IMG/VR virus record: IMGVR_UViG_3300032294_001352
Span: 1-64,000 of that record
DNA length: 64,000 nt
DNA from: a virus
Reading direction: 5' to 3' (one strand)
Numbering within the stretch: position 1 is the stretch's first letter; every line of letters starts with the position of its first letter. The notes under the pieces were generated by a model. It did no database searches and was not told the origin of the DNA. It was given only the letters and a program-made list of their open reading frames with translations. The position numbers and the translations under genes are program-made. This document shows, one piece after another, positions 2,623 to 53,009 of this stretch.

Positions 2623-3546
2623 ATGGGCAGGAATCGACCAAAAGCAGGCGTTGGTGTGGTTCAGCAAGTGGTGAATCAAATCCCCACTGATGGGCAGCCG
2701 ATTGACACGGCCTATCCCTATGAGGATGGCACGTATTATTACTTGTACGGATTTCCTAAGGAAGTACAAGACATGATTATTGGTGGCGGCAATGAAGAAG
2801 CAGAGTATGTTCGGAATGCGTCACCAGAAGAGTATGAGATCCGTAAAGGAACGTACCAAAGTTTGGGTCTAGACATTGAGAATCGTGTGGACCAGCAGAT
2901 ATTTGCGGATCTTACGAGCATGTTTTCCCCAGCAAATGGAGTCATTGCACGGCGCAGCATCAATGTTGGCTACTGGAATCGTGATGAGATCAACATTGAA
3001 AATCTTTCATTTTCTACCACAAAGGAAACGCCAGACTACGTGGGCTTTGCCATGATTGCTCGGCAGGTGACTGCGGCACAGGAGATTGCACGTCGTACCG
3101 GAATGATTGTGCACATAGACGTGAATGCAGCACAGGGTGGTACATATTCCGGTTTCTCAGTCTGGCCAAAACTCGGTTATGACTTTGAGATTCCTGAGCA
3201 ACTACAAACACTTCTTGTAGAGGATTATGGATTCAAAGAGAATGAAGTAGACAAAGGCACTGCCGCATTTATGAGTACATACAATCGCAACGGCTATGAC
3301 GGATATAGCGTGTGGCGTGAAATCACGGAAAATCTCAATCTAAGTTACTCACCAAGTGGGCGCACAACCATCTATCCTGATGGCCGATCAACGCCAGCAC
3401 TGGAAGTGACAAAAGAATACGCACGTCAATTCTCTAAGTCTGTTAAGCGGCAACAGCAGGGTGTCTTTGGGAATGGCCAACTGAGTGACGAAGATGACGC
3501 TATCCTGCATGAGATTTGGATGAACATGCGCAACGCAAAGGATTGA
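2623..3546 (+). CDS. MGRN-family protein A, 307 aa, with GNAT-like domain
   Basis: Member of the phage's own family of proteins starting M-G-R-N-R-(K)-K-x-G-x-G. After a variable part come a short module (SLGLDIENR near 85), a domain at about 105-235 with GFAMIARQVTAAQEIARRTG and FSVWPKLGYDF, and the tail LSDEDDAILHEIW. The 'Gx..AM..RQ..AA...G ... VWPKLGY' signature resembles GNAT-type acetyltransferase domains seen in phage structural proteins; that is an inference. Full-length paralogues sit at 47740, 48571 and 49696. AGGAG lies before the ATG. Function unknown. Confidence 0.85.
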   Translation: MGRNRPKAGVGVVQQVVNQIPTDGQPIDTAYPYEDGTYYYLYGFPKEVQDMIIGGGNEEAEYVRNASPEEYEIRKGTYQSLGLDIENRVDQQIFADLTSMFSPANGVIARRSINVGYWNRDEINIENLSFSTTKETPDYVGFAMIARQVTAAQEIARRTGMIVHIDVNAAQGGTYSGFSVWPKLGYDFEIPEQLQTLLVEDYGFKENEVDKGTAAFMSTYNRNGYDGYSVWREITENLNLSYSPSGRTTIYPDGRSTPALEVTKEYARQFSKSVKRQQQGVFGNGQLSDEDDAILHEIWMNMRNAKD

Positions 3547-3548
3547 TG

Positions 3549-4097
3549 ATGGGGCGCAATCGGAAACGCACAAGTGCCAGTGTTGGAGCAGTCACCTACC
3601 GTATTGTTGAAAGCGGCAGTAGTGGTGACATCACCAAAGAACTTGGTGACTGGTCCACGTATCCACCACGCGCCAAATCCATGTTTCAAGACGGAGTAAG
3701 CACGTTGGCTGCGTTTGTTGCCAGTGATGAGCGATGGTCCAACTTAGTGCGTGACAAGTTTGGGCTTGATCCTGCCAATCCTGCACATCTTGAAGTTGTT
3801 GCGGCAGTCGCAGGAATCACCAGTGCAGAAGACTTAACGCTTGATGATGATGAGGAAAACACCATATTGTCATCTGGGCTTGATTCAAGTGGCCGTGTAT
3901 CTGTGTGGCCATCCGCTGATGGTACACGCATTGACGTGGATATTGGTACGTTTGCCAAATTACGGACATCCAATCAACCACGTCTAGCCTACGCAATGAT
4001 TCGACGCATGGTGTGGGGGATGCGGCAGTGGGCTGAGATACAGGGTGTTCCACCAGAGGGTGCTATTTACAGGCTGAGTCTGATGGAATGGCAATGA
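3549..4097 (+). CDS. MGRN-family protein B, N-terminal part (split gene)
   Basis: Starts MGRNRKRTSASVGAV and carries the family's middle module (FGLDPANPAHLEVVAAVAGI) and the first half of the GNAT-like domain (LAYAMIRRMVWGMRQWAE ... IYRLSLMEWQ), then stops at 4095-4097. In full-length paralogues the protein continues directly into a 'VWPKLGY' strand, which here is in another frame beginning at 4094. The TGA overlaps the next ATG as ATGA, so the two halves could be made by coupled translation; otherwise it is a frameshifted gene or a read error. Confidence 0.75.
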   Translation: MGRNRKRTSASVGAVTYRIVESGSSGDITKELGDWSTYPPRAKSMFQDGVSTLAAFVASDERWSNLVRDKFGLDPANPAHLEVVAAVAGITSAEDLTLDDDEENTILSSGLDSSGRVSVWPSADGTRIDVDIGTFAKLRTSNQPRLAYAMIRRMVWGMRQWAEIQGVPPEGAIYRLSLMEWQ

Positions 4098-4375
4098 ATG
4101 GAGTGGAAACATGGGCTAAACTCGGATTCAATTTCACGTTGCGTCGGGAACTCCGTAGTGCCGCAGAAGACGCAGGATTCAGTAGCACAAGCACACTGGA
4201 TCTAATGACGGAGCGGAATGCTAATGGTCAACTAGGCTTTGATGCGTGGAATAGCATTGTAGCCCAAGTGATTGCTGAGGATGGCAGCGCAGAAGCAGAT
4301 GGTGGATTCCAGATTGGAGATGGAAGCAGCAGTTTGCGTGTACTTCAACGATATGGTGAATTACAAGGCTATTAA
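4094..4375 (+). CDS. MGRN-family protein B, C-terminal part (split gene)
   Basis: Begins MNGVETWAKLGFNF, which aligns with the GFxVWPKLGYxF strand of the paralogues, followed by LMTERNANGQLGFDAW and the family tail SLRVLQRYGELQG. It has no MGRNRKK leader and overlaps the preceding stop codon by ATGA. It clearly completes the gene that starts at 3549. Whether it forms a separate working polypeptide cannot be told from the sequence. Confidence 0.7.
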   Translation: MNGVETWAKLGFNFTLRRELRSAAEDAGFSSTSTLDLMTERNANGQLGFDAWNSIVAQVIAEDGSAEADGGFQIGDGSSSLRVLQRYGELQGY

Positions 4376-4385
4376 GGAGTAGATG

Positions 4386-5042
4386 ATGGGAAGAAATCGT
4401 AAGAAGCGTGGTGTTGGGGCTGTGGAGGCTAAGATCTATGACGTTTTTGGGAACGTGATTGGAGAAACCACGCCAGAACCTGCGGCAACACCACCAGTGC
4501 AACCACAAACCGTAGAAGCACCAGCACCTGTAGCCAAAGTAAATGACTACATTGCCAATGTCACTGGTGATGGATTAACTAGTGCTACACGCTTGTCACT
4601 GAAAGAGTCAGAGTTTAACGACTTGACTCCTGATCAACGCACCAAGATGTTGCAAGATGTGACGAATGCAGCAGATGACATATCCGTAAAATTGGCTGAG
4701 CGGATTCTTGAACAAGGCGCACCACGCTTTGGTACACCAGAACGCACAGAGTTCCAGAACGCATTGAGCAACGTGGATGAACTGGGCAAAGTGGTATCAC
4801 TCTTGATGCGTGCTGACTTCCAAGATCAAAAGACAAGCCCAAGCAAGGCTGAGGCTGAGCGTGCCTATTTGCCGCAGTGGCGTGACTCATTCCGCTCATA
4901 CGTACTCCGAGAGATCCGTCAAGCCGTGCGCCAGATGGGTGACGCAGCACCAGCAGCACTCCGTGAATTGCGTGGCCAACAACGTGCTGTGGAAGAGGCA
5001 ATAGAGTTTGTACCGATTGCCGCACGGAATCGCGCACGATAG
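4386..5042 (+). CDS. MGRN-family protein C, 218 aa
   Basis: Starts MGRNRKKRGVGAV followed by the second shared module KIYDVFGNVIGE, also present in the proteins at 48571 and 49696. The rest differs: a Pro/Ala/Thr linker (about 30-55) and a helical, charged C-terminus (about 75-218) ending in Arg-rich RNRAR. It has no GNAT-like domain. Two adjacent ATGs occur; the second (4386) has better spacing from AAGGAG. It shows that the leader is shared by proteins with unrelated bodies. Confidence 0.82.
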   Translation: MGRNRKKRGVGAVEAKIYDVFGNVIGETTPEPAATPPVQPQTVEAPAPVAKVNDYIANVTGDGLTSATRLSLKESEFNDLTPDQRTKMLQDVTNAADDISVKLAERILEQGAPRFGTPERTEFQNALSNVDELGKVVSLLMRADFQDQKTSPSKAEAERAYLPQWRDSFRSYVLREIRQAVRQMGDAAPAALRELRGQQRAVEEAIEFVPIAARNRAR

Positions 5043-5095
5043 TATTGCTGATGCTTGTATGATACAAGTAAGTGGGATTGATAGGAGAATCAAAC

Positions 5096-6343
5096 ATGGG
5101 CCGTAATCGTAAAAAGGGTGGCGCAGGAGCAGGTGCAACGACGGCCACTCCAGTGCCGCAAGCAAACGCAGGAACAATCAATGGTTGGGAGCAAATTGGT
5201 GACAACGCAGACGGAACGCTTACCAAAGTGTTGCCAGATGGCACCGTCTTGACTATCTATCCAACGTCCTCTGGTCCAAATGATTTTGCGATTGACGTTG
5301 AGCAAGATCGAAGTGGTGGCGTTAGTGTGATTGCTGTAGAGGATGCACGCAACGCTGATGGCACGTTCAACATGGATGCAATTGCGGCAGCAGCACAACG
5401 CTACGCAGAAGCGTTGCAATCAGAAGAACCGTATTATGAGGATGAGGCAGAATTACAGTCAGGCCTTATTGACTTTCTCAATGAAATTGGTCGTGAAACT
5501 GGTGCACCTGGCTTCTTTGATCGCTTACTCCGTGGCGAACCAGTGCAGTCACCACAAGCCGTGGCTGAGTCACGCAAATTGGCTGATGAGTCCGCAAAGG
5601 CAGCAGATACGTTTGGTACGGTGGTGCAACGCATGGCACCGGACCAGATGAATGCACAACAGGCTGCTGCGGCACGTCAGGCCATTATCCAAGGCATTCA
5701 GGCTGCTGGTGGTGCACTGAGTAAGCAGGATTTGGCTGATATGCAGCGTATTGCTGGAATGCTCTCACCAAACTTTGTTGAGCGGCAACGGAATCGTGTG
5801 TTGGGTGGAATTGCTGCACTTGGCCGGATGCACGCAGACGTGGCCACGGCTTTGCGTCGTGGTACTAATGCTGGCATTCAGGAAGCGTTGGATCGCACGT
5901 CACGCGTAGAAGACGGCCTCCGTACTACGGTTGACACAGTGATGCAAGGTGCGCTGCAACAAGATGCGTTAGTGCGGCGCCTTAATGCACTATCCAAGCG
6001 TGCTGAGCGTCAGGGATTCCCAGAACCAGCACGTCAGGCCATCATTCAGGCTATCCGCTCATTACCACTTGTAGAACTGGAAAAATCAAGCAGTGGTGCT
6101 GTGGGAATGATTGCGCGCCTTGGTCGCAATGGCTTACTTCCAAGCGTACAAGCCGTAGCACAAGCACGCCAGTTGGGTGGGCGGCAAAACTTGCAGGCCA
6201 ATGTACAGGAAACGGCTGAGGGTATTGCGCGTGCAATCACTATCCGTCGTGAGCAACAAGGCCAGAAGTCACCTGCCAAACAAATCACTGATCGCCTACG
6301 CACGTTAGAGCGTGCCAGTGCTGTAGCACGCTCTGGTCGATAA
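5096..6343 (+). CDS. MGRN-family protein D, 415 aa, helical
   Basis: Starts MGRNRKKGGAGAG. Residues about 25-110 form a domain also found in the proteins at 16717 and, in part, 46369 (WEQIGDNADGTLT ... LPDGTVLTIYP ... DARNADGTFNMDAIAAAAQRY). From about 130 to the end it is long, Ala/Gln/Arg-rich and helical (AAAARQAIIQGIQAAGG, LNALSKRAERQGF), suggesting an elongated or oligomeric structure. AGGAG precedes the start. No catalytic motif seen. Confidence 0.83.
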   Translation: MGRNRKKGGAGAGATTATPVPQANAGTINGWEQIGDNADGTLTKVLPDGTVLTIYPTSSGPNDFAIDVEQDRSGGVSVIAVEDARNADGTFNMDAIAAAAQRYAEALQSEEPYYEDEAELQSGLIDFLNEIGRETGAPGFFDRLLRGEPVQSPQAVAESRKLADESAKAADTFGTVVQRMAPDQMNAQQAAAARQAIIQGIQAAGGALSKQDLADMQRIAGMLSPNFVERQRNRVLGGIAALGRMHADVATALRRGTNAGIQEALDRTSRVEDGLRTTVDTVMQGALQQDALVRRLNALSKRAERQGFPEPARQAIIQAIRSLPLVELEKSSSGAVGMIARLGRNGLLPSVQAVAQARQLGGRQNLQANVQETAEGIARAITIRREQQGQKSPAKQITDRLRTLERASAVARSGR

Positions 6344-6395
6344 GACTTGATGATGCATGTAGGATAAATCTAGAACGTAGCAAAGGAGAGATACC

Positions 6396-7346
6396 ATGGG
6401 CCGTAATCGAAAAAAGGGTGGTGGTGCTGGGGCTGTGGAAAATCGTGAACCAGAGTTGGATTCAGGTGGTGGCGGCAATAATCAACCGTTTATCAATCCA
6501 CCAGAACCACAAGAAGAAGTTCCTGTTGAACCGCAGCCACAACCACGTCAACGTATGACACCAGAGCAAGTGTTTGGTCCAGACATTTACGATCCAGGCA
6601 TTCCGCGTCAACTTGAACCAGGCGGCATTCGTACTGCGTGGAATAATGCAACGGCTGCACAACTTGGTCGTGCATTAGAAGATGCGCCAACTGCACAATC
6701 ATTTACGATGATGTACAATTTGCCAACCGCACGCGAGTATTTTGACATTCCATCTAAAGAGCGAGCACCACTCACAAAACGCGAAGTATTGCAGTTGGCT
6801 GACGTGATTGGTGGTTCAGAAATTGTACGAAATGATGGATATGATGCACTTCTTCGTGATCTTGGACTTGAGGGAATGCCGCGTGCAACGTCACGTACTA
6901 TCCGAGTTGGCCGTGACACCAAGCCAATGGTTACGCGCGTCAGTCGGTTAGCACGAAAGTTGCCAGGTATTGAAAATCTTAATCCTGAAGATCGTGCGCG
7001 CGTTGGTGCTATCTTAGACGTGATTGGTGGTATCTCATTGACGCGTGAGCGTGCATGGGAAACCATGATTTTGACTCGTGGTCAAACAACGCCAAAAGGC
7101 GAAGTGATGGGGCGGCAAGTCAAACGATTGATTGCTGAGGGGCGTCGATTGTCTAATGAAATCAATCGCATTATGGGTGATAACACGCCACCACGAAAAG
7201 ATGGACTTCCTAAGCCTGGCACACCTGGTGCACAAGTGTATGACGCTCTCTTCACTAAGGCTGGTCGTGGGCATGATTTCCGCGCACGCAATCACAAGGC
7301 ACCGATGTACGCAGATCGTGGTCTAGAACAAATCAACAACGACTAA
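6396..7346 (+). CDS. MGRN-family protein E, 316 aa
   Basis: Starts MGRNRKKGGGAGAVEN, then an acidic/Pro/Gln-rich linker (about 20-60) and a mainly helical body (about 65-316) with many Arg, for example RAWETMILTRGQTTP and RRLSNEINRIMGD. The C-terminus is basic and His-rich (RGHDFRARNHKAP). No known domain recognised. Last gene of the plus-strand MGRN block, ending 21 bases before a bidirectional terminator. A strong AAGGAG is present. Confidence 0.83.
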   Translation: MGRNRKKGGGAGAVENREPELDSGGGGNNQPFINPPEPQEEVPVEPQPQPRQRMTPEQVFGPDIYDPGIPRQLEPGGIRTAWNNATAAQLGRALEDAPTAQSFTMMYNLPTAREYFDIPSKERAPLTKREVLQLADVIGGSEIVRNDGYDALLRDLGLEGMPRATSRTIRVGRDTKPMVTRVSRLARKLPGIENLNPEDRARVGAILDVIGGISLTRERAWETMILTRGQTTPKGEVMGRQVKRLIAEGRRLSNEINRIMGDNTPPRKDGLPKPGTPGAQVYDALFTKAGRGHDFRARNHKAPMYADRGLEQINND

Positions 7347-16716: not shown

Positions 16717-17349
16717 CTACGGAGCATTGAGTGTGCGCTCATACGTTGCCTTAGCGCGTTCTAAATCTTGCCGCAGTCGATACACTTTGTATTGATCTCG
16801 TGGTGATGGTACGCCAATCGGTGGGCGCATCAACCGATCAATCTGTTGCTCTAACCTACCAATCTTTTCTGATAGGTTCTGCAACTTCGTTTCTTTTGAT
16901 GTACTTGTAGCAGATGCACGTTGCGTTTGACGCGGTTTTGGCTGCTCAGTAGGTGCTGGCGTGGCCGGTGTTGATGTTTCCGCACGTTCTGTTGGTTCAT
17001 ATTGATAACGTTGAATGTTTTGTCTAGACCATTGATCCATTGCGTCTGATACAACGTTCCAGTTGACTGTTCCATTGACGTTTCGGCTATTAGGAATTGT
17101 GACTAATCCCTCATCTGACATTGTTGTACCGGTACCTTCAACTTCCCATGCGTACAAATCAGGATCAGCAGAATTATTAGCAGTCTGAACAAGTAACTGT
17201 GTGCGATCAGGAAATCTGCGAATAATGCTGTCACCAGAATCATCAAATGGCTTCCAATTTGCATTCATATTCATTGTGTTGGTTGCCGCATTAGTGGGTG
17301 CTTCCGGTGATACTGCACCTGATCCTGCTTTCTTTCGATTACGGCCCAT
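16717..17349 (-). CDS. MGRN-family protein F, 210 aa (only minus-strand member)
   Basis: Starts MGRNRKKAGSGAVSPE. Residues about 30-105 match the N-terminal domain of the protein at 5096: W.PFDDSGDSIIRRFPDRTQLL, YAWEVEG and SRNVNGTVNWNVVSDAM. Then a Thr/Pro/Ala linker and a C-terminal coiled coil (KLQNLSEKIGRLEQQIDRLM). The presence of a member on the opposite strand shows that the family is dispersed. AGAGGTG lies before the start; a large inverted repeat lies upstream. Confidence 0.83.
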   Translation of the reverse strand: MGRNRKKAGSGAVSPEAPTNAATNTMNMNANWKPFDDSGDSIIRRFPDRTQLLVQTANNSADPDLYAWEVEGTGTTMSDEGLVTIPNSRNVNGTVNWNVVSDAMDQWSRQNIQRYQYEPTERAETSTPATPAPTEQPKPRQTQRASATSTSKETKLQNLSEKIGRLEQQIDRLMRPPIGVPSPRDQYKVYRLRQDLERAKATYERTLNAP

Positions 17350-17368
17350 GATTTGCACCTCTTATAGA

Positions 17369-39495: not shown

Positions 39496-42400
39496 CTACT
39501 TTTTTTTTCCGGCCGGTGGATAGGTGTTCTTGGCCGGTGCCTGCAAGTCACGCTTCTTTCCCTGCTTGACTCCAATAGATGGCACGAACGCAGACGTGAT
39601 GTCTTTTTTCATGCCAGCCTTTTGCCGCAGTACTTCCGCTCCGGTGGATTGGTTCTTGGGTGACATGATGTTCTTGGGCATGGCCGTAGTATCACTCATG
39701 GCCTTACTCACTTTGCGTGCAGCCGTGCTACGACCACCAGACGTGTTGACGCGCACCGTTGACGTGCTGTGTGTGCCAGCACCGTAGCCAGGTACAGACC
39801 ACGCAAGATCACTTCCTTTGCCGCCAACATAACTTGGGCCTTGGTCCGTGGCCACTCGACCAGTGTACGTTCCTTTTGGCGTTGGCACTGGTGTGCTTTG
39901 TGGGGGCACAGCGCGCTTCTTCACAGGAGTAGCACGCTTTGCCATCTTCTGTGTGCCAATCAAATCCACAGGATCAGCAAACGTCTTTTGCTCCGTGCTC
40001 AGTTTTGGTTGTGACGTGCTTGCCGCACGCTTCTTCATAGGAGTAGCAGCCTTTTTCATGTTCACTCCGTGTTTTGATGATAACGCTTGTAAGTCTGACT
40101 GGGCTTTGCTGATGGCAGCCTGCTTCTTTAAGTCAGAGGAAATAGCACTGAGCGCAATCTGACGATCGTATCCGGTGCGTTTTGGACCACGATCACTCAC
40201 ACCCTTTGACGGTGGGGCTGTGTAGCGTGTTGGTTCTGGCTTTGAGGCAACCGTTGGCGTAGGTGCTGGTGTTGCTGCAGGTGTAGGAGTAGGCGCACTA
40301 GGCATGTTGGCCTCACCTGCACTTGGCGTAGGTGCTGGTGTTGGCGTAGTGGCAGGCTTTGGCGTAGCATATTGCTTGGCCTTGTTCTTGTTCCATGACG
40401 CAGTGCGCTTGGACCACTCTTCATAGGCCTTCCGATTGGCTTCCATCTGTGCAGCCGTTGGTCCAGGCTTGGTTGACGGTGGCTGAGTTGTACCAGTTGG
40501 CTTTGCCGCACTTCCTGATGTCATTGGGCCTTTTGGCAGTGACGTGTACGGTGGCGCAGGCCGTGCCTTTTCCTTTGGTGTTGACGTGGCCACAGGTGGC
40601 TTCCCAGACGTAGCAGGTGCACTCGGCTTTGTACCAGTTGGCTGTGCGGAACTGGTTGGTTTAGTCGTTGACGTAGCAACAGGTGGCCGTGTGGTAGACG
40701 TAGGAGCACCTAATCCCACATCACCGGCTGCCGCAGTTGGCCGTGGCGTGTACGTAGGAATGCTAGTGCCAGTTGGTCGTGGACTACTCGTTGGCACAGA
40801 AGTACTTGTTGGCTGCTTTGTGCTGGTTGATCGTGGCGTACTTGTGGCCAGATTCCCACCGGATTTTGGCGTTGCTGTGGTGGTCAAGCCGACATCACCG
40901 GCTGCCGCAGTCGGACGCGGAGTACTGCTCGGCTGAATGGTGCTTGTTGGCCGTGGCGTATTGGTCGGAATCGTCGTGCTTGACGGCCGTGGTGTGCTTG
41001 TTGGCTGCGGAGTATTGGTTGACGTGCGCGTGCTTGTTGCAGTACGCGTGTTACTGGCTGTTGGAGTCTGAGTGATGATGGTTGGTTCAATCAAATCAGA
41101 CTCAACTTCTTCAATGGTACGAGTATTGGTGGCCGTTGGCGAACGTGTGCCAGTCGCGGTTGACGTGGCCGTGGCTGTCGGCGAGCGAGTACCAGTTACT
41201 GTGGCTGTCGGTGTTTCCGTGGCACCAGTAGGTGTTGGCGTGCGTGTTCCTCGGGTGGCCAGTTCCGTTTCTGCCGCACGTACTTTCCCTTTTTCCTGCT
41301 CATACCGGCCTTGCGATCCGTAGATGTCATAGTAGGAAGTACCGTATGGCACTTCAATGTTTCGTGTGGGATACGCAGTGCGCGTAGCCGTGGCCGTAGG
41401 AGTGGATGTTGGCGTGCTAGTAGCCGTGGCAGTTTCCGTTGACGTAGCCGTTGGCGTTGGTGTGAACGTCATACCTGGCGGCAAACCAGTATCTTCCGTA
41501 GGTGATGGTGTAGCCGTTGGTGTAGCCGTTGGTGTAGTCGTTGGTGTGGCTGTGGTTGCTGATGTAGCCGTAGCCGGTAAGCCATCATCAGACATCCGAC
41601 TGCGACCACTTCGTGCGCTATAGCGTTGCGTGGTCTTTGCTGGTCGTGCCTTGGTCACCTGCTTGGCTTTGGCCATCTTTGGAGTCATTGGTACGTTCAT
41701 GGACCACTCAATCGTTGGTTCTGCCGCACCCATGCGTGTGACGTGACGATCCTCACGCTCTTTCTTGAAGTCTTTGACTGACTTTGGTGTGTTGAGTTTG
41801 ACACCCTTTTTCATGGTGGTAGCCTTTGCACTGAGCGCAATCTGACGATCATATCCAGTACGCTTTGGACCACGGTCACTCACGCCTTTAGGAGCAGGAG
41901 CACCGGTGGTCAACCGAGTGCGTGGTGGTGTGGGATTAGCAGCCGGAGTTGGCGTGGGAGCAGGTGCTAGAGCAGTTGTTGCCGCAGGTGCTGGTGCTGG
42001 AGCGGATGGCTTATCAATTCCTACATCACCAGACGCAGCCGACGGCTTGGGTGCAGCGTACTGTTGTGACTTTGTTTTGTTCCATGTAGCAGTGCGCTTT
42101 GCCCATGACTCATAGGCCTTACGGTTGGCCTCCATTTGCTCCGGTGTTGGACTAGGCTTAGATGCGCCAGTTCCTGGCCGATCTGACTTTGGACCTGCCG
42201 CAGTAGCAGAGTAATCACTAGGTGAGCGCCCACTTGCATTTGGCGTGGCCGTTGGCGTGGCCGTAGATGGTGGCTGTGTACCTGATCGTTTTGCAGGAGC
42301 ACGAGTGGCAGTACGTGTTGGCGTACGAGTAGGAGTTCGTGTTTTGGCTTGTGCTGTCTGCGTCTTTTGCCGCACAGCCGTCTGTGTCTTCTGCGGATTA

Positions 42401-42861
42401 GTTTGAGTAGCAGTACGAGTAGCAGTACGAGTAGCCGTGCGTGAGGCCGTTGGCGTAAACGTTGGGGCTACCGTGGTCGCTGTGAGTGACGGTGTTGATG
42501 TTGTAGTTGGCGTAGCCGTATCCGTAGGCACACGCGTGTACGTAGGTGACGGTGTGCGTGTGCTGGTTGGTGTGGTGGTAGGCGTACCAGTAGCCGTAGC
42601 CGTGTTAGTCGGTGTACTAGTACTTGTAGCCGTATTGGTAGCCGTGGCCGTTGTTGACGGAGTTGGCGTGGATGACGGAGTAGGAGTGGAAGTGCTTTGC
42701 ACTGGTGGTTTGGATGTTGGTCGCGGTGCCCATCGTGGTGCCGCAATTCCACTATCAGGAGTTGGTGTGATTGTTGACGGTGGCTGCGTTGATCCAATAG
42801 TAGCAGACCGACGCACTACTTTCCGTTTTTGCACCTTAGCGTTTGAAAGTGTCTTCTTCAT
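39496..42861 (-). CDS. Giant Thr/Pro/Ala/Ser repeat protein, 1121 aa
   Basis: Starts MKKTLSNAKVQKRKVVRR (GGACAG upstream), then long TPT/TAT/TST repeats broken by short conserved blocks. Two blocks occur twice: QMEANRKAYE.W.KRTA.WNK followed by Q.A.PKP, and KGVSDRGPKRTGYDRQIALSA. The peptide AAAGDVGL also recurs. So the protein is built of two duplicated arms. The C-terminus is basic (KQGKKRDLQAPAKNTYPPAGKKK). Such repeats are typical of extracellular linkers in Chloroflexota. Not a known fibre; no signal peptide. Possibly a flexible virion or packaged protein. Confidence 0.8.
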   Translation of the reverse strand: MKKTLSNAKVQKRKVVRRSATIGSTQPPSTITPTPDSGIAAPRWAPRPTSKPPVQSTSTPTPSSTPTPSTTATATNTATSTSTPTNTATATGTPTTTPTSTRTPSPTYTRVPTDTATPTTTSTPSLTATTVAPTFTPTASRTATRTATRTATQTNPQKTQTAVRQKTQTAQAKTRTPTRTPTRTATRAPAKRSGTQPPSTATPTATPNASGRSPSDYSATAAGPKSDRPGTGASKPSPTPEQMEANRKAYESWAKRTATWNKTKSQQYAAPKPSAASGDVGIDKPSAPAPAPAATTALAPAPTPTPAANPTPPRTRLTTGAPAPKGVSDRGPKRTGYDRQIALSAKATTMKKGVKLNTPKSVKDFKKEREDRHVTRMGAAEPTIEWSMNVPMTPKMAKAKQVTKARPAKTTQRYSARSGRSRMSDDGLPATATSATTATPTTTPTATPTATPSPTEDTGLPPGMTFTPTPTATSTETATATSTPTSTPTATATRTAYPTRNIEVPYGTSYYDIYGSQGRYEQEKGKVRAAETELATRGTRTPTPTGATETPTATVTGTRSPTATATSTATGTRSPTATNTRTIEEVESDLIEPTIITQTPTASNTRTATSTRTSTNTPQPTSTPRPSSTTIPTNTPRPTSTIQPSSTPRPTAAAGDVGLTTTATPKSGGNLATSTPRSTSTKQPTSTSVPTSSPRPTGTSIPTYTPRPTAAAGDVGLGAPTSTTRPPVATSTTKPTSSAQPTGTKPSAPATSGKPPVATSTPKEKARPAPPYTSLPKGPMTSGSAAKPTGTTQPPSTKPGPTAAQMEANRKAYEEWSKRTASWNKNKAKQYATPKPATTPTPAPTPSAGEANMPSAPTPTPAATPAPTPTVASKPEPTRYTAPPSKGVSDRGPKRTGYDRQIALSAISSDLKKQAAISKAQSDLQALSSKHGVNMKKAATPMKKRAASTSQPKLSTEQKTFADPVDLIGTQKMAKRATPVKKRAVPPQSTPVPTPKGTYTGRVATDQGPSYVGGKGSDLAWSVPGYGAGTHSTSTVRVNTSGGRSTAARKVSKAMSDTTAMPKNIMSPKNQSTGAEVLRQKAGMKKDITSAFVPSIGVKQGKKRDLQAPAKNTYPPAGKKK

Positions 42862-42935
42862 ATCTGTCCTTTGTGCAACAGGGGAATCAGCACTCAAGCC
42901 GACTCCCCTGCTACCGTTGCCGCACTTAATGCTAC

Positions 42936-44136: not shown

Positions 44137-44781
44137 CTAGCCTTTCTTGCGTGGGCGCATCGCCTTGGTCAGATCTGCACTTGCAGGCTTCCCATTGATG
44201 AATGCGCCTTGGCCTTTTGCCATCTTCTGTGAAGTACTTCCTTTGCTGCCCACGTTCTTTGCGCTAGTTGGCCGAGCAAGGATTTTTCCTTTGTTTGGGC
44301 CTTTGCTATCTAGGCTAGATGGCTGCATGGTAACGACAAGTGGACCTTGCTTTGCATTTGCCGCACTCATATTGTTGGCTGTGTTGGCCCATTGTTGTGC
44401 ATCTTGCATTGCTTGACCACGAGGCGTTCGTTTGATTCCACCCCAGTACACCTCAGTGTCTTTGGGATTTTGAGGAATATTCACGACTTTACTGACTTTG
44501 CGATTTGATGACGTTGATGATGCCGCACTCTTGACCATTCCTTTGGTTCGTCCACGATTAGGTTTGGCGCGCGACTCAAACATCATTGGTTCTTTCTCAG
44601 TGTAATACCGAGTACCAGTCTGATTGGAGATAGCGCGTGCTGGAACTTCTTGCATCATCATTCCAGCCGTGTTCTTTCCCTCAAGTTTTGCACCTGCAGC
44701 AGCCCAGTTCCTTGCCTCTTGCCGCACGCGTGGCAGTGGCGTTGCATCCTCAATAGGTTCAGTATTGCGTCGCTTCTTCAT
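44137..44781 (-). CDS. Basic low-complexity protein, 214 aa
   Basis: Starts MKKRRNTEPIEDATPL behind GTGGAG. Residues about 130-200 carry QQWANTANNMSAANAKQ and ARPTSAKNVGSKGSTSQKMAKGQGAFINGK; the gene at 42936 has close copies in the same order, including KGQGAYIDGQ. So these proteins share building blocks. Predicted mostly disordered. Function unknown. Confidence 0.7.
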   Translation of the reverse strand: MKKRRNTEPIEDATPLPRVRQEARNWAAAGAKLEGKNTAGMMMQEVPARAISNQTGTRYYTEKEPMMFESRAKPNRGRTKGMVKSAASSTSSNRKVSKVVNIPQNPKDTEVYWGGIKRTPRGQAMQDAQQWANTANNMSAANAKQGPLVVTMQPSSLDSKGPNKGKILARPTSAKNVGSKGSTSQKMAKGQGAFINGKPASADLTKAMRPRKKG

Positions 44782-44793
44782 TGTGCTCTCCAC

Positions 44794-45820: not shown

Positions 45821-46366
45821 ATGGCAAAGCAGCAGAAAACATCACCAAAAGCCATAAAAGCAGCAGAAACTGCGTTGCGTGCCTTGGAACTGCGTAAGGC
45901 CGGAGCAACCTACGAAACCATAGCCCAGATGCTCGGCTATGCGTCTAAGTCAACGGCTTTCACGGCTGTCAACAGAATCATGAGTCAAACCAAACGCGAG
46001 GCAACCAAAGAAGCGTTTGAGATGGAACTGCGGCGCCTAGATGATTTGATGATGACGCTCTGGCCACTGGCGCGTGCTGGTGACAACATGGCTGCCATTG
46101 ATCGAGTGCTCAGAATCATGGAACGTCGTGCCAAACTGCTTGGCCTAGACGCACCTGAGAAATCACAGCAGCAGATTCAGCAGATTATCCGTGTGCAGTA
46201 TGAAGACGTACAATTCCAGCCCACGGAGTTTGAACCAGATGTTCCACTGCCGCAGTTAAACGCACCAACCGTAGAAGTGGTCTACGAGGATGAGGCTGAA
46301 GAAACACTTGATGATGAGCATATGATAGAAGAAGATGAACAAGATGATGACGATCGTGAGGATTGA
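45821..46366 (+). CDS. Terminase small subunit-like DNA-binding protein, 181 aa
   Basis: N-terminal helix-turn-helix (about 20-60: LELRKAGATYETIAQMLGYASKSTAFTAVNRIM) and a helical part with RRLDDLMMTLWPLARAGDNMAAIDRVLRIMERRAKLLGLD, the layout of small terminase proteins that recognise the packaging site. The last 50 residues are strongly acidic. The large subunit is not next to it and not seen in the window. A phage HTH regulator is the alternative. GGAGG precedes the ATG. Confidence 0.65.
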   Translation: MAKQQKTSPKAIKAAETALRALELRKAGATYETIAQMLGYASKSTAFTAVNRIMSQTKREATKEAFEMELRRLDDLMMTLWPLARAGDNMAAIDRVLRIMERRAKLLGLDAPEKSQQQIQQIIRVQYEDVQFQPTEFEPDVPLPQLNAPTVEVVYEDEAEETLDDEHMIEEDEQDDDDRED

Positions 46367-46368
46367 TT

Positions 46369-46827
46369 ATGGGGCGCAATCGAAAAAAGTCTGGCGTAGG
46401 CGCAGTGACTGCGGCACCGGCACCACCGGAGCGTGGTGGTGAGCGTGTGCGAATGGATCGTGCGTTCAATCAACTTCCGGTGGATCGCATCATTCAAGAA
46501 CTGCGTGACAACGTCAGTTTTAACCTACCAGACGTAGAAGACACGTACCGTGAGCGTGACACCGGATTCTCTATAGATAACCGTCAGGAAATGCAAGACT
46601 TCATTGACCAGTTGATGAGTGCGAAGCGGCAAGATGGTTCATGGGATATGAACGCACTGGATGCAGCAGCGCAATACTTCCAAGACGCTCCGTCACGCGA
46701 AGTGTTTTTCCCTGATAATAAAGCAAGAATTGGTGACTTTGGTGAGGAACTGGCTGGCTTCTTACGAGATGTGCGGCAAGCGTATGAACGTGGTGGTGAC
46801 GAGGCAGTTCGTCAGTTAGGAGTGTAG
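46369..46827 (+). CDS. MGRN-family protein G, 152 aa
   Basis: Starts MGRNRKKSGVGAVTAAPAPP. The middle SAKRQDGSWDMNALDAAAQYFQDAP corresponds to DARNADGTFNMDAIAAAAQRY in the protein at 5096, and the later FGEELAGFLRDVRQAYERGG to its next helix, so it is a short version of that protein. Start overlaps the end of the acidic terminase-like gene region; GAGGATTG is the ribosome site. Confidence 0.82.
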   Translation: MGRNRKKSGVGAVTAAPAPPERGGERVRMDRAFNQLPVDRIIQELRDNVSFNLPDVEDTYRERDTGFSIDNRQEMQDFIDQLMSAKRQDGSWDMNALDAAAQYFQDAPSREVFFPDNKARIGDFGEELAGFLRDVRQAYERGGDEAVRQLGV

Positions 46828-47739: not shown

Positions 47740-48567
47740 ATGGGAAGAAATCGCAAACCATCTCGGGAAGTTGCAGCACCTGCGGCAAGTGTGGAGTCCG
47801 TGAGCAAACGGATTAACACCACGCTTGAAGACGCACTCTGGTCCATGTCCACACAAGGCCTCATCTATGATGGCGAGTACGTGGTGCGTGACAATCTGGC
47901 CGACGAAGCCTTTCGAGATGGAATGCGTTATCTGGGGCTGAATCCAGATCGGCCTCGCGATGTGGAGATTATTGCGGCAGCCATAGGAATCTTTGGCGAG
48001 GAAGAAAGTGACATCTACGTGCGCCCAGCAGATGCTCAGTACGATATGGGAATCATATCCATGAGCATGGCTGCAGAAGCCCAACGTGGATTCAAAGTGC
48101 TGCCAGATAAAGTGGTCGTGGAAAACGTGTCATTTGCCAAAGGCCTCACTCCGTCAGACAACATTGGCTATGCAATGCTCGTGCGGCAAGCGTGGGCACT
48201 CCGAAAGATCGGTGAGCGATTAGGCAAACCAGTGGTAGTCAGCACGTCAGCACTCAGTGATGATGACTACTGGAAAGGCGTGCAAGTGTGGCCAAAGATG
48301 GGCTACAACTTCCCACTCACAGGTATTATCCGTGAGCGTGCCATGGCCAATGGCTTCCAAGCACGCAACACTCCGGAACTGATGACTGAAGTCAATGCCG
48401 CAGGCGAAACAGGATACGATGCGTGGGGCAGGATCGTTAGTGAGGCGTTGAAATACATGCCAGACAAAGAACTCCGTATCCGTGGCAGCATGACGGTGAC
48501 GGATGACAATGATACTGGACTTCAGGTGTTGTTGAACTATGGGCGGCAAAAAGGAATATTGGAGTAG
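47740..48567 (+). CDS. MGRN-family protein H, 275 aa, with GNAT-like domain
   Basis: Starts MGRNRKPSREVAAPA. Shares MRYLGLNPDRPRDVEIIAAAIGI with the 3549 protein and the domain IGYAMLVRQAWALRKIGERLG ... VQVWPKMGYNF ... LMTEVNAAGETGYDAW with the other members. It ends GLQVLLNYGRQKGILE, as in the protein at 49696. GAGG precedes the start. First of three tandem full-length copies. Confidence 0.83.
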   Translation: MGRNRKPSREVAAPAASVESVSKRINTTLEDALWSMSTQGLIYDGEYVVRDNLADEAFRDGMRYLGLNPDRPRDVEIIAAAIGIFGEEESDIYVRPADAQYDMGIISMSMAAEAQRGFKVLPDKVVVENVSFAKGLTPSDNIGYAMLVRQAWALRKIGERLGKPVVVSTSALSDDDYWKGVQVWPKMGYNFPLTGIIRERAMANGFQARNTPELMTEVNAAGETGYDAWGRIVSEALKYMPDKELRIRGSMTVTDDNDTGLQVLLNYGRQKGILE

Positions 48568-48570
48568 CAC

Positions 48571-49692
48571 ATGGGCAGGAATCGACGTAAAGCCGGAGTA
48601 GGTGCTGTGGAGCGTGCAGTCTATGACATCTTTGGCAACATCATTGGCCAAGAAGATGACGTTGCTCCTACTCCTACGGAAACCATCACTACCATATCCG
48701 ATCCTGACTTTGAACACGTAGATACCACCGTGTTCAATCCTGTGGCATACTCTGCAACGTTACAAACTATGCTCAAAGAGCAATATGCTGATATGAATCA
48801 AGTGATCTCTATAGGAATGGAGTATTTGAAATCTATATCTGGCAATTCTCAGGATGACTGGATAATAAATAACATGCCGCAAGTACAAACTGTAAAAGGA
48901 ATGATTGCATTAGGATTAGATCCTCAAGTACCGTCTGATAGACGTTTATATACTGATTTAATATCAGGAACAAGCAATTTTTATTCAGGTAAGTGGAATC
49001 CCTCACCTGAAGAAAGAAAGGAAATGCGAAAGCAAGATGCATCTGTACCTGATACTGGAGATGTAGAGTTTGAAGTAGGATTCAGCAGACGCATTAAAGT
49101 AGATAATCCAACAAAAGTAGTAATATCCAATGTGTCATTTTCAGCATCAAAGACTGCTCCTCCAGGAATTGGCTATATGATGATTGCACGTCAGATTAGT
49201 GCCGCGCGTCAACTTGCAAAAAAATTAGGAAAACCAGTAGAGATTGAAACAACTGCTCATAACTCAGAACAATCACAAAAAACAAAGAAGGGTAATACCG
49301 GTTTTCACGTTTGGCCAAAACTTGGCTATGTCTTTGAGATTCCTGAAACCGTCAAAGTTGAATTGCGTCGCATGGGATTTACAGACAAACAAATGAACAA
49401 TTCAGCAACACTGATGCAAAGCCGAAATCCACAAGGCCAACTTGGTTTTGACGTGTGGAGTAAAGCACTAGTAGCAGAAGGTGATAGTAAGTGGGCTGTG
49501 AATGGAAGAACAGTCATAAATCCGAATGCATCAACACCATCACCTGCTGAGCAAGTCACGATTGCCTACGGAAAGCGCAAAGGCTATCTCAAAATGCAGC
49601 AGAATAAGCGGCAAAACAATGACGTGTTCCTCAGTTCAGAAGATGACGCAATCCTACGTGACGTGTGGGCTTCCATGGGAAGATTGGAGTAG
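48571..49692 (+). CDS. MGRN-family protein I, 373 aa, AT-rich core
   Basis: Starts MGRNRRKAGVGAVERAVYDIFGNIIGQ and ends SSEDDAILRDVWASMG, matching its neighbours. The central part (about 48760-49330) is clearly richer in A/T and uses codons such as AGA, TTA and ATA that neighbours avoid, so it may come from another phage by recombination. It holds the GNAT-like signature (IGYMMIARQISAARQLAKKLG ... FHVWPKLGYVF). AGTAGC with GGAG upstream. Confidence 0.85.
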   Translation: MGRNRRKAGVGAVERAVYDIFGNIIGQEDDVAPTPTETITTISDPDFEHVDTTVFNPVAYSATLQTMLKEQYADMNQVISIGMEYLKSISGNSQDDWIINNMPQVQTVKGMIALGLDPQVPSDRRLYTDLISGTSNFYSGKWNPSPEERKEMRKQDASVPDTGDVEFEVGFSRRIKVDNPTKVVISNVSFSASKTAPPGIGYMMIARQISAARQLAKKLGKPVEIETTAHNSEQSQKTKKGNTGFHVWPKLGYVFEIPETVKVELRRMGFTDKQMNNSATLMQSRNPQGQLGFDVWSKALVAEGDSKWAVNGRTVINPNASTPSPAEQVTIAYGKRKGYLKMQQNKRQNNDVFLSSEDDAILRDVWASMGRLE

Positions 49693-49695
49693 CAG

Positions 49696-50769
49696 ATGGG
49701 CAGAAACCGGAAAAAGGCTGGTGTGGGCGCGGTTGAACGTGCTATCTACGATATTTTTGGCAACGTGATTGGCCAAGAAGATGAGAATGCGGCACCTGCT
49801 CCGGTGAGCGATCAACCAGTCATTCTTACCGGAGCGGAACTCACGCGCCAGTTAGGTGACACCAGTGGATTCTCACCCAATGTCCGGAAGTTGTTCACTG
49901 ACGTGGAATCACCTATCGTCACCAATGATCCGCGCGTACAAAAGAACATGCGGCAACTGGGATTGGATGACACCAATCCTGAGCATCGCCGAATCTTTCG
50001 CATTCTGTTTGGCTTACATGAAGGCACTGGGAAAATGGAGCATCCCAATCCGGCCATCTTGGTGAATGATGACCAAGAGATTATAGACGCCGATGCCGCA
50101 TTCTCCGTTGGATCACGTGGGAAGTTCGCAGGTGTGGATCGTGCAGCAAACTCCACAATGCGTCTGGCCATCATCAAAGGCGATAACGTCATCATTGAGA
50201 ATCACACCTACGTGATGACGGATCCGAATGAGCAGATGCAAGGTGCTGGCTATGCCATGCTCCGGATGCAGGCCTATGCCGCACGCAGACTCAATGAGAT
50301 AACTGGGCGCAACGTCACCATCCGGACCACAGCACTCTCACGAGATGCACGGCTTGATCCGAATGGGATAGAGTGGGTGGGTGCGCATACGTGGCCAAAG
50401 TTAGGCTATGACTTTGACTTCAACGATCCGCGCGTGCCTAGTGATTTGGTGGAATCACTCCGTGCCGCAGGCTTCAAGAGTATGCGTAGCAGCGACTTGA
50501 TGAGTGAAGTCAACGCAGATGGTGAGCGTGGCTATGACGTGTGGCCGTTCATTGTGGATGAGATTCTAAGCATTGATGGCCAACTGAGCATGAAAGGCAC
50601 CATGAACGTCACCAATGACAACGATCGTGGACTCCAAGTCATGCAGAACTATGGGCGGCAAAAGGGAATCGTTAAGGGTGGCACGACGCGCAACGTGGGT
50701 GGCGTGGATGGGATTACACTGACTGGGATGGATAACGATATTCTTCGCCAACTGTGGCAGCAGATATAG
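49696..50769 (+). CDS. MGRN-family protein J, 357 aa, with GNAT-like domain
   Basis: Starts MGRNRKKAGVGAVERAIYDIFGNVIGQEDE, nearly the same first 30 residues as the previous gene. Then LGLDDTNPEHRRIFRILFGL, GAGYAMLRMQAYAARRLNEITG, HTWPKLGYDFDF, LMSEVNADGERGYDVW and GLQVMQNYGRQKGIV, followed by the tail GMDNDILRQLWQQI. It is the most complete example of the family's modules. Strong GGAG. Confidence 0.85.
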   Translation: MGRNRKKAGVGAVERAIYDIFGNVIGQEDENAAPAPVSDQPVILTGAELTRQLGDTSGFSPNVRKLFTDVESPIVTNDPRVQKNMRQLGLDDTNPEHRRIFRILFGLHEGTGKMEHPNPAILVNDDQEIIDADAAFSVGSRGKFAGVDRAANSTMRLAIIKGDNVIIENHTYVMTDPNEQMQGAGYAMLRMQAYAARRLNEITGRNVTIRTTALSRDARLDPNGIEWVGAHTWPKLGYDFDFNDPRVPSDLVESLRAAGFKSMRSSDLMSEVNADGERGYDVWPFIVDEILSIDGQLSMKGTMNVTNDNDRGLQVMQNYGRQKGIVKGGTTRNVGGVDGITLTGMDNDILRQLWQQI

Positions 50770-52033: not shown

Positions 52034-52062
52034 TTGACAAACTATACATTTTGTCTTACAAT
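52034..52062 (+). promoter_or_regulatory. Promoter of the RNA locus
   Basis: TTGACA (52034-52039), 17-base spacer, TACAAT (52057-52062). The predicted start is about 52069, just before the folded RNA. No AGGTTGA leader, in keeping with a non-coding transcript. Region 51949-52033 holds only a weak hairpin (CCAATTT/AAATTGG). Confidence 0.85.
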
Positions 52063-52082
52063 GACTGACATGAGGGAATGGC

Positions 52083-52361
52083 GTGTGGGGAGAGAAAAAA
52101 CCGTGACTGACACTCACGAGTACCTCACACTTAATGGTGAGAGATGGTAGTGGTTGCCATCCAGATGTGTTGACTCGCAATCAACATGTTGACACCAGCC
52201 GTAGGTGGTGCGACCACCTCAGCAGACCTACAAGCATTATCGGACTCCGTGCGCTGGTAATGTGGAAGGCGGGCACCTCGAAGAAAGAAAGCGTCGCACA
52301 GGAACTGGTACTCGGTATTACACTGAGTAGGTGGGCAACCTGCCAAATAGCCCACCGTTAT
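52083..52361 (+). ncRNA. Unclassified structured RNA upstream of the tmRNA
   Basis: About 280 bases with no gene but many pairings: GTGTGGGG with CCTCACAC around a GTGA/TCAC hairpin; GATGG/CCATC with a nine-base loop; a nine-pair hairpin with seven-base loop CTCGCAA; a three-way junction closed by ACCAGC/GCTGGT with arms GTAGG/CCTAC, GGTGG/CCACC and CGG/CCG; ACTCGGT/ACTGAGT; GGTGGGC/GCCCACC. It begins at a strong promoter and reads into the tmRNA. It is not a tRNA (no cloverleaf) and I could not match it to a known class. Confidence 0.65.
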
Positions 52362-52494
52362 GGGGATGCTCTGGTATTGACAGGGTGATTTGGCAATCAG
52401 TAGCGATAACTGCCCACGGGAAGACGCGAACGCTGCCTGCCTTTAATGGTGATAATCATTCTGGACTGCGGTTCGACTCCGCACATCTCCACCA
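52362..52494 (+). ncRNA. ssrA: Very short tmRNA (133 nt)
   Basis: tmRNA rescues stalled ribosomes. Acceptor stem GGGGATG (52362-52368) pairs with CATCTCC (52484-52490), with a G-U at the third pair, the alanine identity signal; A and CCA follow. T-arm TGCGG/CCGCA with loop TTCGACT; the D-region CTCTGGTATTGACAGGG matches the tmRNA consensus; helix P2 is GGGTGATT with AATCATTC (52454-52461). The possible tag frame ends at TAA (52444) with further in-frame stops at 52450 and 52453; it reads ...EDANAACL, not the usual LAA end. Most tmRNAs are 300-400 nt with four pseudoknots, which are absent here. Confidence 0.85.
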
Positions 52495-52496
52495 AT

Positions 52497-52658
52497 GCTC
52501 AGGTTTCGTTTGGGAAGTTTGACAGGGAGCGCAATCCTAGGATGTTATCGCCGATCCGGCCAATCGGATAGTGGAATCCCGACGGGGATAGAGTGAGAAA
52601 TCATCCGCTCACCAAATTGCGCCCACATACGCAGGTTCAATTCCTGCCCTGAGCACCA
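52497..52658 (+). ncRNA. Second tmRNA-like RNA (162 nt), non-alanine acceptor
   Basis: Starts two bases after the CCA of the tmRNA. Acceptor GCTCAGG (52497-52503) pairs perfectly with CCTGAGC (52648-52654), then A and CCA. T-arm GCAGG/CCTGC with loop TTCAATT. GTTTGACAGGG matches the D-region of the first RNA, and helix GGG(a)GCGCAAT (52525-52535) pairs with ATTGCGCCC (52616-52624) like P2. Inside are hairpins ATCCG/CGGAT, ATCCC/GGGAT and GTGAG/CTCAC. The third acceptor pair is T-A, so alanine charging is not expected. No tag frame is obvious. Confidence 0.72.
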
Positions 52659-52694: not shown

Positions 52695-53009
52695 ATGAAC
52701 AAGCACAAGTCACTGAATGAGATGATGGCTGAGAAAAACATCAAGATGGTCGTGAATAATTTCATGGTTGGTGATTTATCCGTGCGCGTGGTGGCCAACA
52801 ACATGGGCCATGACTTTGAGCGGATGGCGAACAACCAGTGCAACATGGCCATCTACATCATCCGTGAGCGTGATTGGGATGAGGAGCAAATCATCATGCT
52901 TGGTGGTGAGTCACTGGTGATGGATATTGAAGACCATGACCAAGTGCTGGTCCATGCAAAACTGTTGCTTAGCCGTCTGATGTTGTCGCTGCTTGATGCA
53001 ATACAGTAG
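52695..53009 (+). CDS. Hypothetical protein, 104 aa
   Basis: Not recognised. Starts MNKHKSLNEMMAEKNIKMV; N-terminal helices, a strand pair (MAIYIIRERDWDEEQIIML) and a hydrophobic C-terminal helix (AKLLLSRLMLSLLDAI). The AGTAAGGAGC site matches cassette leaders, but the gene follows the RNA locus. It may be on the same transcript as the tmRNA. Confidence 0.72.
   Translation: MNKHKSLNEMMAEKNIKMVVNNFMVGDLSVRVVANNMGHDFERMANNQCNMAIYIIRERDWDEEQIIMLGGESLVMDIEDHDQVLVHAKLLLSRLMLSLLDAIQ

What the first reader, a model, noticed from the sequence alone, without database searches (positions are those of the whole stretch)
52083..52361. Unclassified folded RNA with its own consensus promoter
Almost every segment of these 280 bases can pair locally, including a three-way junction closed by ACCAGC/GCTGGT and a nine-pair hairpin with a seven-base loop. 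It starts at a TTGACA-17-TACAAT promoter, codes for nothing and precedes tmRNA genes. Large ornate phage RNAs such as GOLLD and ROOL are also found next to tRNA genes, but this one is much shorter and I cannot assign it to them.
Basis: partly seen in the sequence, partly recalled or inferred. Interest (0 to 1): 0.8.

Follow-up and report, generated by a model that had tools for sequence, protein, structure and literature searches.

The report
Unconserved leader before phage mini-tmRNA
The stretch is a transcribed, non-coding lead-in to a shortened phage version of a bacterial ribosome-rescue RNA; its folding is no stronger than chance and no relative seen carries it, whereas the shortened rescue RNA behind it is a real, conserved and more interesting feature.

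Summary
The promoter (TTGACA-17-TACAAT), the absence of coding and the tmRNA just downstream are confirmed. The claim that structure marks the 279 bases as an ornate RNA is not. Folding energy is ordinary (z about -1.6; 14 of 80 background windows of the same phage are as low). The named ACCAGC/GCTGGT junction has pairing probability 0.015. No Rfam family, phage, plasmid or related viral record matches. Four other viral records (three distinct sequences) carry the same 133-nt tmRNA and none has the leader. In three, a promoter's -10 box ends exactly 10 nt before the tmRNA; here the gap is 299 nt. The segment is best read as a lineage-specific 5' leader, co-transcribed with the RNA genes and probably removed by RNase P; whether the freed leader does anything is open. 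The firmer discovery is downstream: a family of 133/134-nt phage tmRNAs without a conserved tag, supported by covariation (16 of 40 pairs with both-side changes; 0 of 500 shuffles). It resembles mycobacteriophage DS6A's tRNA-domain-only tmRNA, a kind reported to inhibit tmRNA, perhaps by titrating SmpB. A second tmRNA-like element follows it. Unexplained: 24 bases of the leader recur exactly once, inside an ORF.

The parts
52034..52062 (+). sigma-70-type phage promoter TTGACA-17-TACAAT; start of transcription inferred at about 52069
   Evidence: similar promoter copies at record positions 70457-70505 (+) and 84598-84647 (-)
52070..52361 (+). transcribed (inferred) non-coding 5' leader (the finding); not found in any relative
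   Evidence: relatives without it
52083..52130 (+). predicted 5' hairpin GTGTGGGG/CCTCACAC
   Evidence: predicted only, mean pair probability 0.99
52132..52360 (+). predicted multibranch domain closed by 52132-52158 with 52334-52360 (8+1+5+7 pairs)
   Evidence: predicted only, main helices 0.97, 0.89 and 0.92; long-range pairing reached by 39 of 500 shuffles and 7 of 319 background windows
52304..52327 (+). 24-nt exact repeat of 44596-44619 (-); overlaps a predicted hairpin 52309-52329
44596..44619 (-). other copy of the 24-nt repeat, inside the ORF 44137-44793 (-), same sense as the ORF
52362..52494 (+). 133-nt mini-tmRNA: tRNA-like domain, P2 and a conserved core, no conserved tag frame
   Evidence: Rfam RF00023 68 bits; alignment A2 and covariation; tag frames
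52497..52658 (+). second tmRNA-like element: acceptor GCTCAGG/CCTGAGC plus ACCA, T-arm, P2-like GGGAGCGCAAT/ATTGCGCCC, three hairpins in place of an mRNA domain
   Evidence: sequence; fold z -1.84, z -2.26; 13.3 bits to the mini-tmRNA model over 901 bases, E 0.1 over the record; no tmRNA family match in Rfam
52695..53009 (+). first protein gene downstream, 104 aa, unknown; no terminator-like site found between it and the RNA genes on the + strand
   Evidence: coding score 0.352

Best explanation
The 279 bases are most of the roughly 292-nt 5' leader of a phage non-coding RNA operon. One sigma-70-type promoter makes a transcript containing this leader, a 133-nt tmRNA with no conserved tag and a second tmRNA-like RNA, and reads on into protein genes. 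The leader entered (or was kept) only in this lineage between the promoter and the tmRNA. The host's RNase P presumably cuts at the tmRNA 5' end and releases the leader. The functional products are most likely the tmRNA-like RNAs, which by analogy with the DS6A type would bind SmpB and/or alanyl-tRNA synthetase and interfere with host ribosome rescue. The leader is then a by-product, or at most a cis element affecting folding or yield of the tmRNA. Shown from sequence: promoter match, order of elements, non-coding leader, conserved tmRNA structure, absence of the leader in the relatives seen. Inferred: transcription, RNase P cleavage, inhibition of rescue, insertion here rather than loss elsewhere.
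For: Same-type promoter copies stand before genes elsewhere in the record. No second promoter or + strand terminator-like site was found between 52062 and 52362. In 3 of 4 other mini-tmRNA loci (L138, L146, L148; L146 and L148 are identical over the RNA) a TATAAT box ends 10 nt before the tmRNA; in the fourth (L150) the tmRNA directly follows an ORF. Of 30 related records searched with the leader, 29 had no match and one had a 17-nt match at E 0.03. Its folding is ordinary and it does not code. Mini-tmRNA: 95.6% of cells paired, 16 of 40 pairs changed on both sides, 0 of 500 shuffles as high.
Against: The long-range closing stem has more confident pairs than 312 of 319 background windows. Predicted leader-tmRNA pairing (62.5 expected pairs) is at least as high as with 56 of 60 shuffled leaders. 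Both fit a functional leader, though neither passes a strict test. Folded alone, the mini-tmRNA's covariation-supported P2 gets only 0.14, so weak thermodynamics cannot exclude a real leader structure. The relatives are distant, so a leader in closer kin may simply not be in the collections.
Confidence: 0.6

Rival explanations
1. An independent, phage-specific structured ncRNA: the leader is released and acts in trans (decoy, sponge or scaffold), as supposed for ornate phage RNAs.
For: Confident long-range stem closing a multibranch domain; promoter-proximal position; the predicted domain ends one base before the tmRNA acceptor stem.
Against: z about -1.6 and unexceptional in its genome; no Rfam family; no homologue to show conservation; missing beside the same tmRNA in four other records.
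Confidence: 0.17
2. A cis-acting leader that controls the tmRNA: its 3' part pairs with the tmRNA interior (for example 52341-52353 with 52383-52395) and delays folding or processing.
For: Inverted repeat of 13 nt, 85% complementary; predicted leader-tmRNA pairing above the mean of shuffled leaders (62.5 against 33.2, sd 18.8).
Against: Exceeded by 4 of 60 shuffled leaders, so within chance; downstream sequence alone also upsets the predicted tmRNA fold.
Confidence: 0.13
3. An eroded protein gene: as at the other copies of this promoter, a gene once followed, and only a ribosome-site-like GGGGAG and a short GTG ORF (52103-52150) remain.
For: The two other promoter copies are followed by AAGGAG and ATG; in L150 an ORF sits exactly where the leader sits here.
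Against: No frame has coding character; no convincing protein similarity in six frames to loci or window, or of the ORFs to phage records.
Confidence: 0.1

Closest known systems
Mycobacteriophage DS6A tmRNA (tRNA-like domain only; PMC4131195 and PMC11915505, passages read)
   Same: Phage-encoded tmRNA without a tag reading frame; here the 133-nt tmRNA behind the leader keeps the acceptor stem with a G-U third pair, T-arm, D-region and P2.
   Different: DS6A is described as little more than the tRNA-like domain. The present family adds a conserved core of about 32 nt with further helices, some covarying, and the window has a second tmRNA-like RNA. Inhibition of host tmRNA is untested.
GOLLD and ROOL RNAs (PMC12286853, passages read)
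   Same: Phage non-coding RNA beside tRNA-type genes.
   Different: No covariance-model match even at E 10; about a third of the length of GOLLD RNAs, many of which exceed 800 nt; no conservation and no excess of structure shown.
Processed 5' leaders of bacterial tRNA and tmRNA precursors (recalled, no call)
   Same: Transcribed sequence upstream of a tRNA-type 5' end, with RNase P expected to cut there.
   Different: About 292 nt is long for a leader read from its own promoter; three relatives have 10 nt between -10 box and tmRNA.

Membership tests
Any Rfam family, GOLLD and ROOL included (for 52066-52361) | Score at or above the family's gathering threshold | tested here: not met
   the only match in the leader is Xist_exon1 at 8.9 bits, E 6
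GOLLD/ROOL-like ornate RNA | Structure supported by covariation | not testable with these tools
   No homologue of the leader found
Independent structured ncRNA | Folding stability beyond that of shuffles and genomic background | tested here: not met
   z -1.62, -1.57 and -0.80; 14 of 80 background windows as low
Independent structured ncRNA | Conserved in relatives with the same neighbours | tested here: not met
   0 of 4 other mini-tmRNA loci have it
5' leader of a tmRNA transcript | Same promoter can drive both, no terminator or second promoter between | tested here: met
   (consensus scans only)
5' leader of a tmRNA transcript | Cleaved by RNase P at 52361/52362 | not testable with these tools
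   Needs RNA ends from infected cells
Phage tmRNA without tag (DS6A type), for 52362-52494 | tmRNA tRNA-like domain with P2 | tested here: met
   RF00023 68 bits over the full model; acceptor, P2 and T-arm 100% paired in 4 distinct sequences
Phage tmRNA without tag (DS6A type), for 52362-52494 | No tag reading frame | tested here: met
   Frames compared: the frame with the shared DNCP stretch ends at different stops (5 to 14 residues counted from D), none like the usual tag end (recalled); a very short tag is not strictly excluded
Phage tmRNA without tag (DS6A type), for 52362-52494 | G-U third acceptor pair (alanine identity, recalled) | tested here: met
   GU in 4 of 4 distinct sequences
Phage tmRNA without tag (DS6A type), for 52362-52494 | Inhibits host trans-translation | not testable with these tools
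   Experiment needed
Second tmRNA-like element 52497-52658 | Significant match to a tmRNA model | tested here: inconclusive
   13.3 bits, E 0.001 in 901 bases but E 0.1 in the record; no tmRNA family match in Rfam; third acceptor pair U-A, not G-U (sequence)

The most novel reading that the evidence does not exclude
The phage encodes a three-part RNA device against host ribosome rescue: two tagless tmRNA mimics plus a newly arisen structured leader that holds the first mimic inactive, or acts as a third RNA in trans, until cut free.
Probability: 0.12. Interest if true: 0.75.

Novelty: new variant of a known kind. Interest (0 to 1): 0.4.

Why it matters
As a separate ornate RNA the segment has no support beyond prediction, so it should not enter lists of new RNA families. 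The locus still matters: it shows a family of 133/134-nt phage tmRNAs with a conserved core, covarying helices and no conserved tag, in uncultured phages, which makes the idea that phages jam ribosome rescue with tmRNA mimics testable beyond the DS6A case.

Tried and rejected
Homologues of the leader: a 16-nt leader pattern in viral contigs gave 10 records, none with any Rfam match; the best extension, in L050, is 70% over 74 nt and no RNA gene was found there. The neighbouring amidase gave 41 relatives, matching mostly its N-terminal half, none encoding the neighbouring genes. The 104-aa gene and the DnaC-like gene gave none. Phage and plasmid blastn gave nothing beyond chance.

Coding: the 84-aa and 41-aa ORFs, two reverse ORFs and the 26-codon ORF at 52070 were tested and rejected. 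A tmRNA-like domain inside the leader: best 4.0 bits, E 0.49. Two-segment duplex energy as a test of the long-range stem was uninformative (619 of 2000 shuffles and 125 of 399 background windows as good). Matches of the tmRNA-core pattern in L147 and L149 have no Rfam match and lie in coding-like sequence, judged by eye; they were dropped. One search matches L151-L155 and the three bacterial matches were judged by eye not to be mini-tmRNAs. The 34-bit match in the record of L071 is among tRNA genes. Replication origin: no turn of GC skew near 52 kb. ARAGORN found no gene in the window, although Rfam finds the tmRNA.

Full report
What the window is. The window is bases 1-64000 of an 87,876-base IMG/VR virus record. 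It encodes a phage with Erf-like, DnaC-like and endolysin-like genes and a gene similar to phage sliding clamps; a 1658-aa ORF has the size of a tape-measure protein (my reading). Its capsid-like protein is 85% identical to one on a short contig and at most 40% identical to those of isolated phages. The host is unknown.

The observation. The promoter is real in sequence: TTGACA, 17 nt, TACAAT at 52034-52062. Two more copies of the type, with the same GACTGACAT after the -10 box, stand before genes at record positions 70457 and 84647. The segment is not coding: in all six frames it scores like wrong frames of known genes (leader frames -0.372 to 0.044; correct 84-codon chunks mean 0.285; wrong frames mean -0.135). 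A tmRNA starts at 52362.

Structure against chance. The fold of -92 kcal/mol has z -1.62 against 200 shuffles, -1.57 in a repeat and -0.80 from 52070. Of 80 windows along the same phage, 14 are as low as -1.57 (mean -0.57, sd 1.10). That almost every segment pairs is thus what sequence of this composition does anyway. The model prefers a stem of 52132-52158 with 52334-52360 around hairpins at 52164-52190, 52203-52219, 52234-52263 and 52309-52329. Its 17 confident long-range pairs are matched by 39 of 500 shuffles and by 7 of 319 background windows. This is the strongest point in favour of structure, and it is weak. Thermodynamics is a poor judge both ways: the mini-tmRNA's own P2, supported by covariation, gets only 0.14 when folded alone.

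Relatives. Patterns from the tmRNA led to four other records with the same RNA: L138, L150, L146 and L148, 66-73 bits to RF00023, with L146 and L148 identical over the RNA. None has the leader. In L138, L146 and L148 a TATAAT box ends 10 nt before GGGGATG; in L150 the RNA directly follows an ORF. In the window the gap is 299 nt. A search of 30 related records with the leader gave one 17-nt match at E 0.03 and nothing in the other 29. The leader is thus private to this phage as far as these collections show. Insertion here is simpler than loss in three distinct relatives, but the sample is small.

The tmRNA family. Across four distinct sequences the 40-pair structure holds in 95.6% of cells; 16 pairs have changes on both sides, and 0 of 500 shuffles reach any of the five measures; sliding the partners destroys it. 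The alignment is small, and the structure was derived from it, which favours it in the sliding control. The acceptor is invariant with a G-U third pair. P2, P3, the side hairpin at columns 78-91 and the T-arm covary, and a core AGTARYGATAACTGCCCAYGGNAAGACRYGAA is nearly invariant. No frame gives a consistent tag. Published passages describe DS6A's tRNA-domain-only phage tmRNA and report that such a molecule strongly inhibits tmRNA, perhaps by titrating SmpB (PMC4131195, passages; PMC11915505, passages). My searches for phage tmRNA literature (listings only, apart from passages of those two papers) showed no description of this 133-nt family; most subscription papers are not held, so this is no proof that it is unpublished. 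A pattern for the core plus T-arm found three places in 84,980 bacterial and archaeal species genomes, none a mini-tmRNA by eye.

The second RNA. Bases 52497-52658 have a 7-bp acceptor followed by ACCA, a T-arm, a P2-like stem and three internal hairpins. They match the mini-tmRNA model weakly (13.3 bits) and no tmRNA family in Rfam. They have no match in the nine related records searched.

How it probably works. One transcript carries leader, mini-tmRNA, second tmRNA-like RNA and then protein genes. RNase P should free the tmRNA 5' end. The tmRNA-like products probably compete with host tmRNA for SmpB or alanyl-tRNA synthetase. The leader is probably a by-product or a modest cis element; a trans function cannot be excluded. 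All of this beyond the order of elements is inference.

The odd repeat. Bases 52304-52327 are identical to 44619-44596, inside an ORF on the minus strand and in that ORF's sense; an 18-base part of it occurs nowhere else in the record within 3 mismatches. The flanks do not match. A recent copy event or a shared binding site are both possible.

Noticed in passing
52362-52494; L138 5772-5905 (+), L150 1089-1221 (-), L146 173-305 (-), L148 78-210 (-): A family of 133/134-nt phage tmRNAs with no conserved tag, a conserved core and covarying helices; probably the real feature of interest at this locus.
   Followed up: yes
52497-52658: Second tmRNA-like element with tRNA-type ends and a structured insert, not recognised by ARAGORN or as tmRNA by Rfam.
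   Followed up: partly
52304-52327 (+) and 44596-44619 (-): Exact 24-base repeat with a near-palindromic part, shared by the leader and an ORF, in the same sense in both.
   Followed up: partly
2623-7346, 16717-17358, 46363-46827, 47740-50769: Repeated family of ORFs that contain MGRNRKK-like starts, many of them next to each other.
   Followed up: no
39496-42897 (-): Long ORF of 1133 aa very rich in Thr, Pro and Ser, in a region of strong AT skew.
   Followed up: no
L138 7096-7395: Array of TTTGCAAAAAATGCAAATCG-like direct repeats about 1.2 kb downstream of the tmRNA in the relative.
   Followed up: no
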